A stretch of 6,886 nucleotides of DNA from Flavobacteriaceae bacterium (GTDB taxonomy: Bacteria > Bacteroidota > Bacteroidia > Flavobacteriales > Flavobacteriaceae), in contig JAESTN010000391.1 in assembly GCA_016763595.1 (NCBI GenBank), positions 1 through 6,886 on the forward strand, given 5' to 3'. This document shows, piece by piece, positions 1,405 to 6,197 of this stretch; position 1 is the first letter of the stretch, and every line of letters begins with the position of its first letter. The position numbers and the translations under genes were made by a program. A model generated the notes under the pieces. That model was given only the letters and a program-made list of their open reading frames with translations. It had not been told where the DNA came from and did no database searches.

Positions 1405-2565
1405 CTACCCTCTAAACAAAAAGAAATCCTCTTTAATAGATTCTATTTTAGAATCGTCGTTAGTAATGATATAATCAATAGCTTTATCTGTAAAGTTTTT
1501 ACCTTTTTCAGTTAACGAAATAATGTCTTTATCAATAGTTATCATATTGTTTCTCAATGCCAAATCTACAACCGATTTAGAGCGCACTTTTTGCCAGTTA
1601 ATATGCTCATTTAAATGGTTGATATGACGTTCGTTTTTTTCTGTATGATTATTTAAATGCAACAGAAATGTCAACAAAGAAACCTCTATTTGTTGCTGTT
1701 TATTTCGATACAAAACAGAAATCAACCCTCTTTTCGGAGCAAATAAATACACCAGTAAAAAAACCATTCCTAAAATAGTAGTCATAGATCCAGAAATTGA
1801 AGCATCTAACCAATGCGCCAACCAGTATCCGGAAATTGCCGAAAAAACACCAAAAAAGACCGAAAGCAATAGCATTTTTTTTAGATTATCAGTCAATAAA
1901 TAAGCAGTAGCAGCTGGTGCTATCATCAAAGCAACAACCAAAATTGCACCTACAGCATCAAAAGCACCAACCGTTGTTACTGAAGCAACACTCATCAATC
2001 CATAATGTAGTACCGCTGGCGAAAAACCTAAAGCAGTAGCCAACCCTGCATCAAAAGTGCTTATTTTTAATTCTTTAAAAAAGGCAAACAATAGGCTTAA
2101 AGTAATAATCAATATCACTCCAATAGTCCATAAGGATTTTGGGCCTAAATCCATTCCATCTAAGAGAAACCTATCAAAAGGAGCAAACGCCAACTCACCC
2201 AATAAAACTACATCGGTATCTAAATGAATATCGTTGGCGTTTTTTGAAATCAATATGACACCAATACTAAACATAGCAGGAAAAACCAACCCTATAGCGG
2301 TGTCTTCTTTTACCAATTTTGTTTTCTGAATAAACTCCACCAACACCACAGTTACAACACCAGATAAAGCAGCCATTATTATTAGTAATGGTGAACCTAA
2401 ATCGTGTGTAATAAAAAAACCGATTACCAATCCTGGTAAAATTGAATGACTAATTGCATCACTAATCAAAGCCATTTTACGCAACACCAAAAAAGTCCCT
2501 GGAATTGCACAAGCTATCGCGACCAAACTCGCAATTAACTGTATTTCTAATTGAGCACTAGTCAT
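1405..2565 (-). CDS. Metal ABC transporter permease (ABC-3/TroD-MntD type) with C-terminal winged-helix-like tail
   Basis: Inner-membrane permease of the ABC-3 family (PF00950), expected to pair with the neighbouring permease to form the channel for Mn(II), Fe(II) or Zn(II). Residues 1-285 are mostly hydrophobic membrane segments. The family motif SDAISHSILPG is at residues 35-45. The stretch ALGFSPAVL followed by the long hydrophobic run to LLTDNLKK (about 178-230) is typical of the second half. Family members are usually 270-300 residues; this one is 386 because of a soluble tail from about 286. The tail has a helix (VSLLTFLLHL), a second helix pair (KVRSKSVVDLALRNNMI) and a wing-like end with LTEKG at 351-355, as in winged-helix regulators. 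The ATG lies inside the end of the upstream permease gene (8-base overlap), implying translational coupling. This is the last gene of the operon. The exact metal cannot be read from the permease. Confidence 0.9.
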   Translation of the reverse strand: MTSAQLEIQLIASLVAIACAIPGTFLVLRKMALISDAISHSILPGLVIGFFITHDLGSPLLIIMAALSGVVTVVLVEFIQKTKLVKEDTAIGLVFPAMFSIGVILISKNANDIHLDTDVVLLGELAFAPFDRFLLDGMDLGPKSLWTIGVILIITLSLLFAFFKELKISTFDAGLATALGFSPAVLHYGLMSVASVTTVGAFDAVGAILVVALMIAPAATAYLLTDNLKKMLLLSVFFGVFSAISGYWLAHWLDASISGSMTTILGMVFLLVYLFAPKRGLISVLYRNKQQQIEVSLLTFLLHLNNHTEKNERHINHLNEHINWQKVRSKSVVDLALRNNMITIDKDIISLTEKGKNFTDKAIDYIITNDDSKIESIKEDFFLFRG

Positions 2566-3685
2566 TTTCTTCTACTTGTTGATTGTATAAATTTTCGGCA
2601 AAATGAAATCCCTTTTCTGTCATTGCCCACATCAAACCTTCTACACGGATATACTCTTTATCTTCTAATTTACTTAGTGACTTTCTAGTATAGCCGTGAA
2701 AATTATTCAAAATCTTAACGGTATGTGGATGTGAAATATTTTCGTGACTTTTAGCAATATCAAACATAAAGGCCAATGTTTTATGTAGTTGCAAATCCTT
2801 TCTGTTTTTAACAAATCGTATTTGTCTAAATAGCAAACCTCTTGATGGAGAGAAAATAAAAGAGAAAACCACAAAAGCTGCCGCTACTAACACAATAACG
2901 GGTCCAGTAGATAAATTATTTTGACTGGCACTAATTGCTGTACCTATGACTCCAGAAGTTGCTCCAAAAAACGCAGCCAACACCACCATAATCCCTAAAC
3001 TATTTGTCCATTGTCTTGCCGCTGCGGCAGGTGCTAATAACATTGCACTCATTAAAACAACACCAACTGTTTGCAAACCTAAAACAATTGCCAACACAAT
3101 AAATGACGTAATTAATGTGTCAATCATTTTGGTATTAAAACCCAATGTTTTTGCATAGTCTGCATCAAAAAGTAAAATTTTAAACTCTTTCCAAAACAAC
3201 AAGAGTACCAATAAACAAACCAACGTTACAGTTGCCATAAACCATACATCTCTGGCCAATAAAGTGGCTGCTTGTCCAAACAAAAATTTATCTAAACCTG
3301 CTTGATTTGCATTGGGTTGTTTTTGTATATAGGTCAATAACAACATCCCAAATCCAAAGAAAATCGACAGAATTAACCCAAGAGCCGTGTCAGATTTCAA
3401 ATGTGTTCTTCTGGTAATTCCACGAATCCAAAACGCACCTATTAAACCACTAATCAGTGCCCCAATTAACAATACGTTTGTTTCTTTAGTTCCGGTAATC
3501 AAAAATGCAATTGCAATTCCCGGCAACGCCGCATGCGATATAGCATCTCCCAACAAGCTCTGTTTTCTTAATACTGCAAAACTCCCCAACATTCCGCAAA
3601 TTGCACCTAAAATTGCAGTTCCCAAACTGATAGTTCGTAGCGTGTAATCGTTAAAAAGTAATTCAAAATATTCTGTAAAGCTCAT
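2558..3685 (-). CDS. Metal ABC transporter permease (ABC-3/TroC-MntC type) with C-terminal winged-helix-like tail
   Basis: Second ABC-3 family permease of the importer, paralogous to the gene that follows it. Membrane segments run through about residue 283. The family motif GDAISHAALPG is at 46-56, and the conserved second-half segments TLGFNTKMID and LMSAMLLAPAAAARQWT are at 180-189 and 211-227. At 375 residues it is about 90 longer than a minimal permease. The tail (about 290-375) contains a helix (LHKTLAFMFDIAK), the segment TRKSLSKLEDKEYIRVEG at 333-350, and MTEKG at 355-359. This is the same helix-helix-wing order as in the other permease's tail and in the operon's DtxR-type regulator. 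It starts with ATG 19 bases after the ATPase stop and overlaps the next permease by 8 bases. TroC/MntC-like is chosen from operon position and the extended C-terminus; the substrate metal is inferred. Confidence 0.9.
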   Translation of the reverse strand: MSFTEYFELLFNDYTLRTISLGTAILGAICGMLGSFAVLRKQSLLGDAISHAALPGIAIAFLITGTKETNVLLIGALISGLIGAFWIRGITRRTHLKSDTALGLILSIFFGFGMLLLTYIQKQPNANQAGLDKFLFGQAATLLARDVWFMATVTLVCLLVLLLFWKEFKILLFDADYAKTLGFNTKMIDTLITSFIVLAIVLGLQTVGVVLMSAMLLAPAAAARQWTNSLGIMVVLAAFFGATSGVIGTAISASQNNLSTGPVIVLVAAAFVVFSFIFSPSRGLLFRQIRFVKNRKDLQLHKTLAFMFDIAKSHENISHPHTVKILNNFHGYTRKSLSKLEDKEYIRVEGLMWAMTEKGFHFAENLYNQQVEEND

Positions 3686-3704
3686 TGCTTTTATTCTTTT
3701 TTAT

Positions 3705-4445
3705 TTATTTCTGCACACTTACTTTGTAATTAATTCCGTAAGTTTTGGTCAAGTTATCGTCATTAAAAATCTCTTTTACTGGACCCGTTGCAATCTTTTT
3801 TACATTTAAAAAAGTTACCCAATCAAAATATTCTGGTACTGTTTGCAAATCATGATGAACCACCACCACTGTTTTTCCTTCTTTACGCAATTCTTTTAAA
3901 ATATTTATAATGGCAATTTCTGTCGTTGCATCCACTCCTTGAAAAGGTTCATCCATAAAATAAATGGCTGCATCTTGCGCCAAAGCTCTTGCTAAGAACA
4001 CGCGTTGTTGTTGCCCACCAGACAACTGACTAATTTGTCGATCTTTAAAAGACAACATTCCTACTTTTTCTAAAGATTCTAACGCTGTTTTTTTCTCTTT
4101 TTTCCCTGGTCTTTTAATCCAGCCCAAACTCCCATAAGTCCCCATCAATACAACGTCTAAAGCGGTGGTTGGAAAATCCCAATCTACACTTCCTTTTTGC
4201 GGAACATATCCAACTAATTTTCGTTGTTTCTTATATGGTTTTCCATAAATAGATACACTACCAGCTATGGGGTCAATAATTCCTAAAATAGCTTTTATCA
4301 AGGTTGATTTACCCGCACCATTGGGGCCAACAATTGCCATCATTACTCCTTCAGGAATCGCTAAATCAATATCCCACAATACAGGTTTGTAATTATACGC
4401 AACTGTTAAATCATCTACGGTTACTGCAAATTTTTGTTGTTTCAC
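3705..4445 (-). CDS. Metal ABC transporter ATP-binding protein (TroB/MntB/ZnuC type)
   Basis: Cytoplasmic ATPase that powers the importer formed with the two downstream permeases. All nucleotide-binding motifs are intact in its 246 residues: Walker [10 protein letters not shown] at 40-48, the Q-loop glutamine in [13 protein letters not shown] at 83, the ABC signature LSGGQQQR at 141-148, Walker B IYFMDEP at 161-167 with the catalytic Glu166, the D-loop around 170-172, and the switch His198 in VVVHHD. The [10 protein letters not shown] segment after the Q-loop is characteristic of manganese/zinc/iron-type ATPases (COG1121). The start is a GTG at 4445-4443: an in-frame TAG lies two codons upstream, and the first in-frame ATG would remove most of the fold's first strand. 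The gap to the binding-protein gene upstream is 90 bases, the largest inside this operon. Confidence 0.93.
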
Positions 4446-4535
4446 GTGTTTCTATTTATTGTTTTTTGACGATCATATACTGTTCGTTGTTCATCATTCT
4501 TTTAATGATGAATTTTTTAGCATGCTCGTTTCCTG
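4446..4535 (-). other. Intra-operon gap with small hairpin and a 13-codon ORF
   Basis: The gap between the binding-protein stop and the ATPase GTG contains a perfect inverted repeat, TTCATCATT (4490-4498) and AATGATGAA (4504-4512), with a 5-base loop. On the minus, transcribed strand it is not followed by a U-tract, so it is not a convincing terminator for the operon. It could be a processing or stability element that sets different levels of binding protein and transporter. On the plus strand six T residues follow (4513-4518), but no plus-strand gene ends there. A 13-codon minus-strand ORF, MMNNEQYMIVKKQ (4497-4456), begins in the stem and ends 10 bases before the ATPase start. It may be a chance ORF or a small leader. 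Confidence 0.4.
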
Positions 4536-5450
4536 TTATTTTTGTAATGAACTAATAATTGTCTTCACATTGTGGGTATACATTCCTATATACGTTCCTT
4601 CAATAGTTCCAAAATCTCCCAACGCATCAGAAAACAAAGTTCCGCCTATTTCAATTTCATGCCCTTTAGATCTTACAGCTTCCTGCAAAGCCTCTACGGT
4701 TCTTCTAGGAACAGAACTCTCAATAAAAATCGACTTCACATTTTGCTCCATAATAAAAGCCGCCATTTTTTGAACATCTTTTACTCCAGCCTCTGTTGCT
4801 GTTGATAACCCCTGCAAACCAACTACGTTAAATTGAAATGCTTTCCCAAAATAATTAAAAGCATCGTGTGCGGTTACCAATATTCTTTTCTCTATTGGCA
4901 ATGGATCGATCATTTCTGTAATTACTATTTTTAATGTCGCTAATTCTTTTAAATATGCTTCTCCATTTTCTTTATAAAAAGCAGCATTTTTTGAATCTAA
5001 TTCTGACAACTGGCTGATTAAATATTTTGTAATTATTTCCCAGTTTGTAATATCAAACCAAATATGTGGGTCGTAATTTGAAGCAAAAAATTCAGATTCT
5101 ATCAGACTGCTTTTATCAATTGCATCAGAAACAGCAATTGTTTTTTTATTTTGGTGACGCATTTTTTCAAATACTTCCTCCAACTTTCCTTCTAAATGAA
5201 TTCCGTTATAAATAATCACATCAGCATTAAAAAGCTTGCTAACATCCCCTGCACTTGCTTTGTACAAGTGCGGATCTACTCCTGCTCCCATTAAGCCTTT
5301 CACCTCAATTTTATCACCCCCAATGTTCTTTACCAAATCGGTAATCATCGTTGTTGTTGTTACAATCTGAAGTTTTCCGTTTTTAGACTTCTCCTTTTGC
5401 TTACACCCGATTATGGCTACAACCAACACTATATATAAATATTTTTTCAT
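4536..5450 (-). CDS. Metal-binding lipoprotein of an ABC importer (TroA/ZnuA family, cluster A-I)
   Basis: Periplasmic substrate-binding protein (PF01297) anchored as a lipoprotein; it captures the divalent metal and delivers it to the permeases. From the ATG at 5450 the protein is 304 residues, beginning with a short lipoprotein signal (MKKYLYIVLVVAIIGC) and lipidation at Cys16. The metal ligands are visible: His61 in GVDPHLYKAS, His129 in DPHIWFD, His195 in TAHDAFNYFG, and Asp275 in LFSDALG. This is the His-His-His-Asp set of Treponema TroA (His68, His133, His199, Asp279 there), not the Glu-containing site of PsaA-type Mn proteins. The His-rich loop typical of ZnuA zinc proteins is absent. 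An ATG four codons upstream (5462) is also possible and would overlap the regulator gene by 11 bases; with 5450 the genes are 1 base apart. Family is certain. Metal preference (Mn, Fe or Zn) is unresolved. Confidence 0.94.
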   Translation of the reverse strand: MKKYLYIVLVVAIIGCKQKEKSKNGKLQIVTTTTMITDLVKNIGGDKIEVKGLMGAGVDPHLYKASAGDVSKLFNADVIIYNGIHLEGKLEEVFEKMRHQNKKTIAVSDAIDKSSLIESEFFASNYDPHIWFDITNWEIITKYLISQLSELDSKNAAFYKENGEAYLKELATLKIVITEMIDPLPIEKRILVTAHDAFNYFGKAFQFNVVGLQGLSTATEAGVKDVQKMAAFIMEQNVKSIFIESSVPRRTVEALQEAVRSKGHEIEIGGTLFSDALGDFGTIEGTYIGMYTHNVKTIISSLQK

Positions 5451-5451
5451 T

Positions 5452-6117
5452 TTAAACTGCATTGCTCTCTTTTACTAATAAATTTTCTGCTACTTCATTT
5501 GTGATTAACAATTCAACATCATTAATTTGAACCAATGTCGAATGATCGAAAGGCTCGATATGGATTACCTTTATTGTATTGCCAATGGCTATTTTCTTTT
5601 TATTTAAATACCTTAAAAAATCATCTGACGAATCTTTAACCGCCAGCAAAACAGTTTCTTCATTCTCTTTTAAAGTTGATAATTTAACTTTTTTTCTAAG
5701 GGTAATTTCTCCTTCTTTATCAGGAATAGGATCTCCATGTGGGTCTACTGTAGGAAAACCCAGTAATGCATCTATCTCGTCAATTAGTTTTGGTGATTTT
5801 ATATGCTCTAATTGCTCTGCAACATCATGTACCTCATCCCAATTAAAATTAAGCTTCTCCACCAAAAACACTTCCCACAAACGATGCTTTCTTATAATTA
5901 AAGCGGCTATCTTCTTCCCTTCAATAGTCAAATTTACCCCTTGGTACTTCTGATAAATTAGCACCTTTTTATCTGCTAGTTTTTTTACCATATCCGTAAC
6001 AGAAGAAGCTTTGGTATCTAATTTTTTAGCAATCGCATTGGTACTCACCCCTTTTTTAGCAACCAACCCCAAATGGTAAATTGCTTTTAAATAGTTCTCT
6101 TCAGAAGATGTAAACAT
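5452..6117 (-). CDS. DtxR/MntR-family metal-dependent transcriptional regulator
   Basis: Cytoplasmic metal-sensing repressor, first gene of the operon and probably its regulator. It has 221 residues from the ATG at 6117. The winged-helix DNA-binding domain spans about 1-70 (recognition helix around ASSVTDMVKKLADK, 37-50; wing ending LTIEGKK, 63-69). The dimerization and metal-binding domain spans about 71-140 (RKHRLWEVFLVEKL and VHDVAEQLEHI), and an SH3/FeoA-like C-terminal domain about 150-217. Candidate ligands by alignment from memory are His78, Glu82, His97, Glu101, Glu104 and His105. Glu101 replaces the DtxR Cys102, as in MntR. Residue 8 is Asn where MntR has Asp and DtxR has Met. An in-frame ATG at 6147 is rejected as the start because it lies just upstream of the putative -7 promoter box (6143-6136), so it would not be transcribed from that promoter; MFTSSEENYLKAIY is also the usual family N-terminus. 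The gene abuts the binding-protein gene. Family is certain; Mn-type sensing is inference. Confidence 0.93.
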   Translation of the reverse strand: MFTSSEENYLKAIYHLGLVAKKGVSTNAIAKKLDTKASSVTDMVKKLADKKVLIYQKYQGVNLTIEGKKIAALIIRKHRLWEVFLVEKLNFNWDEVHDVAEQLEHIKSPKLIDEIDALLGFPTVDPHGDPIPDKEGEITLRKKVKLSTLKENEETVLLAVKDSSDDFLRYLNKKKIAIGNTIKVIHIEPFDHSTLVQINDVELLITNEVAENLLVKESNAV

Positions 6118-6135
6118 ATTGTATTGATTATATAG

Positions 6136-6143
6136 CAAATATA
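6136..6143 (-). promoter_or_regulatory. Putative promoter -7 box of the metal operon
   Basis: On the minus strand this reads TATATTTG, a full match to the Bacteroidota primary sigma -7 consensus TAnnTTTG. It lies 18 bases before the regulator ATG at 6117, leaving a short leader. With the usual 19-base spacer the -33 element would be TTTT at about 6166-6163, a weak match that touches the edge of the palindrome. Confidence is moderate because the motif is short and the region is AT-rich. Confidence 0.6.
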
Positions 6144-6161
6144 CCATTTTTTTGACTTGTT

Positions 6162-6197
6162 TAAAATAATTTTTAGGCTTATCTAAAAATTATTTTA
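6162..6197. promoter_or_regulatory. Perfect 15-bp inverted repeat, candidate DtxR/MntR-family operator
   Basis: The left arm TAAAATAATTTTTAG (6162-6176) and right arm CTAAAAATTATTTTA (6183-6197) are exact reverse complements around the 6-base spacer GCTTAT. The core, TTAGG at 6173-6177 facing TCTAA at 6182-6186, resembles the TTAGG...CCTAA half-sites of DtxR-family operators. It lies between the divergent metal operon and the heme-protein gene. It reaches the expected -33 position of the leftward promoter and spans the -33 to -7 region of the rightward one, so a bound repressor could block both. Symmetry is seen directly; binding by the adjacent regulator is inferred from position and half-site resemblance. 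Confidence 0.7.

What the first reader, a model, noticed from the sequence alone, without database searches (positions are those of the whole stretch)
1405..3685. Both permeases carry a winged-helix-like tail resembling the operon's own repressor
Each permease has 90-100 residues beyond the membrane domain. The two tails can be aligned to each other by eye: helix (LLTFLLHL / TLAFMFDI), then a helix ending in a turn (SVVDLALRNNMITI / SLSKLEDKEYIRV), then a wing closing in LTEKG (351-355) or MTEKG (355-359). The regulator in the same operon shows the same pattern, VTDMVKKLADKKVLIYQ to LTIEGKK (40-69). The closest known parallel is Chlamydia YtgCR, where a permease is fused to a DtxR-like repressor that is released by proteolysis. 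Here the tails lack the dimerization/metal domain and are doubled, so they may be sensors that gate transport, docking sites for the regulator, or releasable DNA-binding pieces.
Basis: partly seen in the sequence, partly recalled or inferred. Interest (0 to 1): 0.7.

Follow-up and report, generated by a model that had tools for sequence, protein, structure and literature searches.

The report
Metal importer wearing repressor-derived histidine tails
Both channel proteins of this bacterial metal importer end in a tail predicted to fold like the DNA-binding part of the operon's own metal repressor; in relatives this tail lacks the repressor's metal domain but keeps nearly invariant histidines, so it likely senses metal inside the cell and would slow uptake.

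Summary
Both ABC-3 permeases of the mntR-SBP-ATPase-permB-permA operon carry a 93-107 residue tail, predicted by AlphaFold2 to be a winged helix. Related operons suggest its origin: in many Bacteroidota the PermB equivalent is fused to a DtxR/MntR-like winged helix plus the DtxR metal/dimerisation domain (YtgCR architecture, already known). Profile comparison links the window's tails to those winged helices. The window type is a separate branch: wHTH only, on both permeases, in Flavobacteriaceae and other classes of the phylum (one homologue is named Rhodothermales). It lacks the DtxR metal domain and has nearly invariant histidines instead: PermA H303, H307, H321 and W324 in 43 of 43 tails, with identity to the window down to 19% (H317 in 38 of 43); PermB H314 and H321 in 40 of 41. 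No such columns occur in 114 fused-tail rows or 73 stand-alone MntR. I read the tails as DtxR-derived winged helices turned into a cis-acting metal sensor that probably trans-inhibits the importer. Release as a repressor, or docking on MntR, is less likely: there is no dimer domain, and two near-complete genomes keep tails and histidines with no DtxR-C protein found. Metal binding and inhibition are untested.

The parts
5452..6147 (-). mntR: stand-alone DtxR-family regulator with wHTH, metal/dimerisation and FeoA domains
   Evidence: Pfam PF01325 8.9e-15, PF02742 1.9e-31, PF04023 4.1e-11
4536..5462 (-). metal-binding SBP (ZnuA family)
   Evidence: PF01297 4e-73
3705..4445 (-). ABC ATPase, 246 aa; Pfam calls only the ATPase domain (plus overlapping P-loop families)
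   Evidence: PF00005 4.7e-31
2558..3685 (-). PermB, ABC-3 permease with winged-helix tail
   Evidence: PF00950 5.4e-73 over residues 14-277; D47/H51 transport-metal pair
2561..2842 (-). PermB tail, residues 282-375: predicted winged helix
2723..2746 (-). PermB H314 to H321 ('H....HPH'), conserved histidines between predicted helices 1 and 2
   Evidence: H314 and H321 in 40 of 41 tails, W353 in 41 of 41
1405..2565 (-). PermA, ABC-3 permease with winged-helix tail; overlaps permB by 8 bases
   Evidence: PF00950 1.3e-51 over residues 9-274; D36/H40 pair
1408..1731 (-). PermA tail, residues 279-386: predicted winged helix plus C-terminal helix
1594..1659 (-). PermA HxxxH...HxxxHxxW motif: H303, H307, H317, H321, W324
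   Evidence: H303, H307, H321, W324 in 43 of 43 tails; H317 in 38 of 43; 3-His+W motif in 0 of 114 fused rows and 0 of 73 MntR
6162..6197 (.). perfect 15-nt inverted repeat with 6-nt spacer upstream of mntR, core TTTAG-N6-CTAAA: predicted MntR operator
   Evidence: this core or a close variant lies near the start of mntR or the SBP gene in 82 of 146 loci against 5.6 expected

Best explanation
The two tails are predicted winged-helix domains, related by profile to the DtxR/MntR DNA-binding domain, that have no DtxR metal/dimerisation domain and instead carry nearly invariant histidines, and together they likely act in place as a cytoplasmic metal sensor that would slow or stop the importer when the cell is metal-replete. 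Steps: (1) shown by sequence: the tails, the absence of the DtxR metal domain, the histidine columns, the presence on both permeases. (2) Predicted: winged-helix fold of each tail (the membrane part was not modelled). (3) Inferred from the family's known architecture, recalled: the tails lie in the cytoplasm near the ATPases. (4) Inferred: the histidines (4 in PermA, 2-3 in PermB) bind Mn, Zn or Fe. (5) Inferred: metal binding changes how the tails pack on each other or on the ATPases and arrests the transport cycle, in the manner of MetNI or ModABC trans-inhibition. Transcriptional control is left to the stand-alone MntR.
For: Fold. Ancestry: HHalign with shuffle controls; PDB profile search, where the top five of nine hits for PermA tails are MntR sequences (E 0.043-0.046, variants apparently of one protein) and DtxR-family entries (ScaR, SloR, DtxR, IdeR) recur among 49 hits for PermB tails (E 0.065-1). 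Related operons carry PermB fused to wHTH + Fe_dep_repr_C; in 114 fused rows (109 distinct), chosen by their HxxWExY motif, which holds the first two ligands, the DtxR-type pattern H,E,H,E/D,E,H is complete in 112. Tail-only permeases form their own clades, one for A (98*) and one for B (99*), each with one or two untailed rows (quick method). The ligand pattern is in 0 of 43 and 0 of 41 tail-only tails, whereas 4 (A) and 2 (B) columns are at least 85% His there and no column is even 50% His in fused tails (114) or MntR (73). The PermA 3-His+W motif is in 43 of 43 tails, in 120 of 120 listed homologues (the best 120 of 2577, 87-100% identical) and in 26 of 27 homologues of one Rhodothermales-type tail. 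In the family survey 80 of 84 genomes with a PermA match align through residue 386. G629 and G780 (99% and 98% complete) have tails and histidines but no DtxR-C protein found, so the tail's role does not appear to need MntR. Precedent: cytoplasmic domains that trans-inhibit MetNI and ModABC (PMC10710835, passages).
Against: No metal binding, inhibition or structure has been measured; the tools gave no coordinates, so clustering of the histidines in space is unchecked, and the tails' side of the membrane was not tested (simple hydropathy gives 9 segments for PermA and 8 for PermB). In MetNI and ModABC the regulatory domain is on the ATPase, not the permease. Invariant histidines could hold a structural zinc or contact the ATPase. 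One tail has been lost now and then (PermB: L083, L261, eroded in L279; PermA: L277, and L287 cut by a stop), so a two-tail pair is not always needed. Foldseek found no match at E <= 0.001 and fold searches rank MarR, CggR and cullin winged helices above DtxR. The best PDB profile hit for PermB tails is a ribosomal protein S19 (E 0.0038), and PermA vs MntR directly is weak (63.9%). Tails are less conserved than the membrane domains (mean information 3.34 vs 3.79 bits in PermA, 3.51 vs 3.94 in PermB).
Confidence: 0.5

Rival explanations
1. The tails are assembly or stability domains: the two winged helices pair with each other or with the ATPase to make the A/B heteromer, and the histidines hold a structural zinc or a contact.
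For: Both permeases are tailed in most such loci; winged helices also serve as protein-protein modules (cullin WHB domains are among the fold hits); invariant G280, W324 and G355 look structural.
Against: Sister fused systems have an untailed PermA, and L037 has two untailed permeases; one tail can be lost (L083, L261, L277); so many nearly invariant histidines exceed what packing alone needs.
Confidence: 0.22
2. The tails are releasable or membrane-tethered DNA-binding pieces that repress the operon, as YtgR does in Chlamydia.
For: YtgCR precedent (PMC5599777 section 9 part 1); DtxR-type wHTH kinship; genome G780 has the predicted operator upstream of the operon but no MntR was found.
Against: No DtxR metal or dimerisation domain, so no evident metal-dependent dimer; predicted helix 1 starts about 6 residues after the last hydrophobic segment, which leaves little linker; 21 of 23 tail-bearing genomes searched have a DtxR-C protein as well; across groups the histidines and core residues are conserved rather than a DNA-reading helix.
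Confidence: 0.08
3. The tails dock the stand-alone MntR, through wHTH-like contacts, and couple transporter state to repression.
For: A mntR gene lies nearby in 15 of 17 window-type loci of the first set, on the same strand in 12.
Against: G629 (99% complete) and G780 (98%) have tails and histidines but no DtxR-C protein found, though both have sub-cut-off PF01325 matches; DtxR-type proteins dimerise through the C-terminal domain (recalled), which the tails lack.
Confidence: 0.08
4. The histidines form a hand-off site that passes the imported ion to cytoplasmic acceptors rather than a sensor.
For: His-rich site on the permease itself; same conservation data.
Against: Does not explain why a repressor-type module was used, nor the sister state in which the intact DtxR metal site occupies the same end of PermB.
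Confidence: 0.1

Closest known systems
Chlamydia YtgCR permease-repressor fusion (fusions reported in 11 phyla by Thompson 2012, as told in PMC5599777)
   Same: ABC-3 permease with a C-terminal DtxR-type winged helix, in a metal-uptake operon
   Different: Here there is no metal/dimerisation domain, both permeases are tailed, a separate MntR is encoded, and conserved histidines are present
Fused PermB of Bacteroidota (Pontibacter, Chryseobacterium, Reichenbachiella, Schleiferiaceae and others)
   Same: Same operon order; related wHTH tail on PermB
   Different: Tail mostly 145-160 aa with intact DtxR-type metal ligands; PermA untailed wherever recovered; no histidine columns in the wHTH
MetNI and ModABC trans-inhibited importers (PMC10710835, passages)
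   Same: Add-on domains that could sense the internal substrate (inferred here)
   Different: Domains there are on the ATPase; inhibition is shown there, not here
MntR/DtxR repressors
   Same: Winged-helix domain by profile and predicted fold
   Different: Tails lack the metal ligands and the dimer domain
Untailed PsaC/MntB-type ABC-3 permeases
   Same: Membrane domain with the D-H metal pair (PsaBC D46/H50, PMC11779740, passages; here D36/H40 and D47/H51)
   Different: The Pfam and NCBIfam permease models end with the membrane domain

Membership tests
YtgCR-type permease-DtxR fusion | ABC-3 permease with C-terminal DtxR-type winged helix | tested here: met
   by profile and predicted fold; for PermA the link to MntR is mainly through the fused intermediates
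YtgCR-type permease-DtxR fusion | DtxR metal-binding/dimerisation domain in the tail | tested here: not met
   no PF02742 match in PermA or PermB at E 0.1; ligand pattern in 0 of 43 and 0 of 41 tails
YtgCR-type permease-DtxR fusion | proteolytic release and operator binding | not testable with these tools
   needs immunoblot and EMSA
DtxR/MntR metal-dependent repressor | winged-helix domain of DtxR type | tested here: met
   HHalign; PDB profile hits (E 0.04-1, marginal alone); Pfam PF01325 did not call single tails
DtxR/MntR metal-dependent repressor | metal ligands and dimerisation domain | tested here: not met
ABC-3 metal importer | PF00950 permeases with cognate ATPase and ZnuA-type SBP | tested here: met
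ABC-3 metal importer | transmembrane D-H metal pair | tested here: met
   D36/H40 and D47/H51, compared with PsaBC D46/H50 (PMC11779740, passages)
Trans-inhibited ABC importers (MetNI, ModABC) | regulatory domain on the ATPase | tested here: not met
   ATPase is 246 aa; Pfam calls no added domain; the add-ons are on the permeases
Trans-inhibited ABC importers (MetNI, ModABC) | internal substrate binds the domain and stops transport | not testable with these tools
   needs metal binding and uptake assays
MarR-type zinc sensors (ZitR) | winged helix closest to MarR/ZitR | tested here: inconclusive

The most novel reading that the evidence does not exclude
A transcription factor's DNA-binding domain has been turned into the metal-sensing brake of an ABC importer: both permeases wear a DtxR-derived winged helix that lost the repressor's metal domain and evolved its own histidine metal site, giving direct feedback on uptake beside, and separate from, MntR's control of transcription.
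Probability: 0.4. Interest if true: 0.82.

Novelty: new variant of a known kind. Interest (0 to 1): 0.62.

Why it matters
Permease-repressor fusions have been read through the Chlamydia case, where the tail is cut off and represses. Here, fused relatives often lie beside a separate MntR (recognised in 44 of 80 named loci, some of them short), and a second branch lacks the DtxR metal domain yet keeps both tails with nearly invariant histidines. If the tails sense metal in place, this is a case of a repressor domain re-used as a post-translational transporter switch. It would make testable how Mn/Zn ABC importers are shut off faster than transcription allows, and suggest a new reading of the permease-DtxR fusions in other phyla.

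Tried and rejected
Tail as a generic feature of the family: rejected, since the Pfam and NCBIfam models stop at the membrane domain and relatives such as L037 have untailed permeases. Tail as by-eye chance: rejected by HHalign against column shuffles. Recent decay in this one genome: rejected, since 80 of 84 family genomes with a PermA match keep the tail to residue 386. Exclusive to Flavobacteriaceae: rejected by the phylum survey. MarR rather than DtxR origin: not excluded by fold search; sequence profiles favour DtxR/MntR, but Pfam scans of single tails gave only scattered weak wHTH hits, none to Fe_dep_repress at E 0.01. The PermA-tail profile made from flavobacterial rows alone matched MntR very weakly (15.7%). 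The loose PermB motif also occurs in 146 of 2050 shuffled tails and in 1 of 114 fused rows, so PermB conservation is judged by column, not by motif. No paper on the wHTH-only double tail was seen in the listings; most subscription journals are not held.

Full report

Where the tails come from. In other families of the same order the operon is laid out the same way, but PermB is 412-454 aa and ends in a winged helix plus Fe_dep_repr_C (PF02742 E 2e-17 to 1e-22 in the four tested; 30 loci). In L033 the tail matches the window's MntR over its residues 16-142 (E 2e-18). In the four tested, Pfam calls the metal domain but not the DNA-binding domain. Of the 80 best named loci from one genome scan, 79 have such a fused permease ORF; in the other, L165, it was not recovered. 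PermA is untailed wherever it was recovered (0-30 residues past the membrane domain). Examples are Pontibacter, Chryseobacterium, Reichenbachiella, Ekhidna, Lishizhenia and Schleiferiaceae, with outliers in Ignavibacteria, Hydrogenedentota, Thiomicrorhabdus and Metabacillus. The scan's query was built mostly from fused proteins and kept only the best 80 matches, so it is not a frequency count. Permease-DtxR fusions are known: PMC5599777 (section 9 part 1 read) says that Thompson et al. found them in 11 phyla.

Two states of one transporter. In a tree of 207 membrane domains (quick method, SH-aLRT), the tail-only PermA rows (42 tailed, 1 untailed) are one side of a branch with support 98*, and the tail-only PermB rows (41 tailed, 2 untailed) with 99*. 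The fused PermB rows lie outside these: 55 fused rows and untailed L037 form a set with 98*, Hydrogenedentota L154 joins it with 84, and Metabacillus L192 stands apart. The program warns of long branches between the A and B halves. The tail-only type is in Flavobacteriaceae and in other classes of the phylum; 17 of 23 such loci checked have GC of 55% or more, against 29-50% in 16 loci of the window's own order. A homologue of one of these PermA tails is named 'Rhodothermales bacterium'. In the family survey 84 of 199 genomes had a PermA match: 80 align through residue 386, G491 keeps the tail after an insertion, G476 is a fragment with the tail, G368 aligns to 322 with a stop, and G350 has only an untailed permease.

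Homology of the tails. HHalign with broad alignments (43 PermA tails, 41 PermB tails, 114 fused wHTH, 73 stand-alone MntR wHTH): B-F 98.3% (1.0e-14), F-MntR 98.6% (9.0e-16), A-F 96.3% (1.6e-9), A-B 96.3% (1.6e-9), B-MntR 95.3% (2.2e-8), A-MntR 63.9% (6.6e-5). Sixty column shuffles per pair never passed score 18.5, against real scores of 28.1-74.1. In a PDB profile search the top five of nine hits for PermA tails are MntR sequences (E 0.043-0.046, variants apparently of one protein), with MarR entries next. For PermB tails the 49 hits mix DtxR-family entries with ZitR and ribosomal winged helices, with a ribosomal S19 first (E 0.0038).

What stands in place of the metal domain. Among 114 fused rows (109 distinct), chosen by the HxxWExY motif that holds the first two ligands, the pattern H,E,H,E/D,E,H is complete in 112 (105 with E, 7 with D; 2 have P there); it is in none of the tail-only tails. 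Instead, the PermA tails have G280, Q291, H303, H307, H321, W324 and G355 in 43 of 43 and H317 in 38 of 43. Identity to the window is 19-30% in the other classes and 35-95% in the order's own rows. PermB tails have H314 and H321 in 40 of 41 (the exception, L279, is eroded), H319 in 29, and W353 in all 41. Fused tails and MntR have no column with even 50% His. The PermA motif is in 120 of 120 listed flavobacterial homologues (a capped list of near kin), in 26 of 27 homologues of a Rhodothermales-type tail, in 0 of 114 fused rows, 0 of 73 MntR and 1 of 2150 shuffled tails. PermA H307 and PermB H314 are paired in the A-B profile alignment, both just after predicted helix 1. Overall the tails are somewhat less conserved than the membrane domains.

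Mechanism. I infer a metal site in each tail and a brake on the transport cycle, by analogy with MetNI and ModABC (PMC10710835, passages). For: a metal-sensing module sits at the same end of PermB in the sister type; histidines stand where the DtxR site is missing; the tail persists without a DtxR-C protein in 2 of 23 tail-bearing genomes (G629 99%, G780 98% complete), although both have sub-cut-off PF01325 matches and a gene may be missing from the assembly. Against: no binding data, no coordinates, untested topology, occasional loss of one tail, and the regulatory domains of MetNI and ModABC sit on the ATPase.

Operator. A perfect 15-nt inverted repeat with a 6-nt spacer at 6162-6197 has the core TTTAG-N6-CTAAA. 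This core or a close variant lies from 200 bases upstream to 40 inside the start of mntR or the SBP gene in 82 of 146 loci, against 5.6 expected from its density in the same DNA. It is found in both states and fits a stand-alone MntR as the repressor. G780 has the site but no MntR found, which leaves a little room for the DNA-binding rival; G629 has neither.

Verdict. A new variant of the permease-DtxR fusion, with the repressor domain apparently re-used. Literature searches listed no description of it; the library lacks most subscription journals.

Noticed in passing
window 6162-6197: Perfect 15-nt inverted repeat with core TTTAG-N6-CTAAA between divergent mntR and a di-haem (DHOR) gene: predicted MntR operator, possibly shared by both genes.
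   Followed up: partly
L271-L273, L275, L276: Stretches in which only one permease was found, fused to a DtxR-like wHTH and metal domain; in L275 (Pfam, just under its cut-off) and by eye L276 a FeoA-like domain as well. A homodimer would place two DtxR modules side by side.
   Followed up: partly
L255 (G780): Operator-like site upstream of the operon but no DtxR-C protein or MntR match in a 98% complete genome.
   Followed up: partly
L278 (G491) 3605-4999: PermA of 464 aa with a hydrophobic insertion of some 60 or more residues between membrane domain and tail; tail and histidines kept.
   Followed up: no
G000 contig C136:6757-7254: Second, 92% identical PermA piece at a contig end of the same assembly, perhaps strain variation.
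   Followed up: no
L104 3684-4718, L105 4280-5302: 340-344 aa proteins with DtxR metal and FeoA domains and an unassigned middle part, next to a stand-alone MntR; no permease recognised in the same stretch.
   Followed up: partly
L088, L094-L097, L100, L101, L103: Fused PermB with PermA and SBP but no ATPase gene recognised in the same stretch.
   Followed up: no
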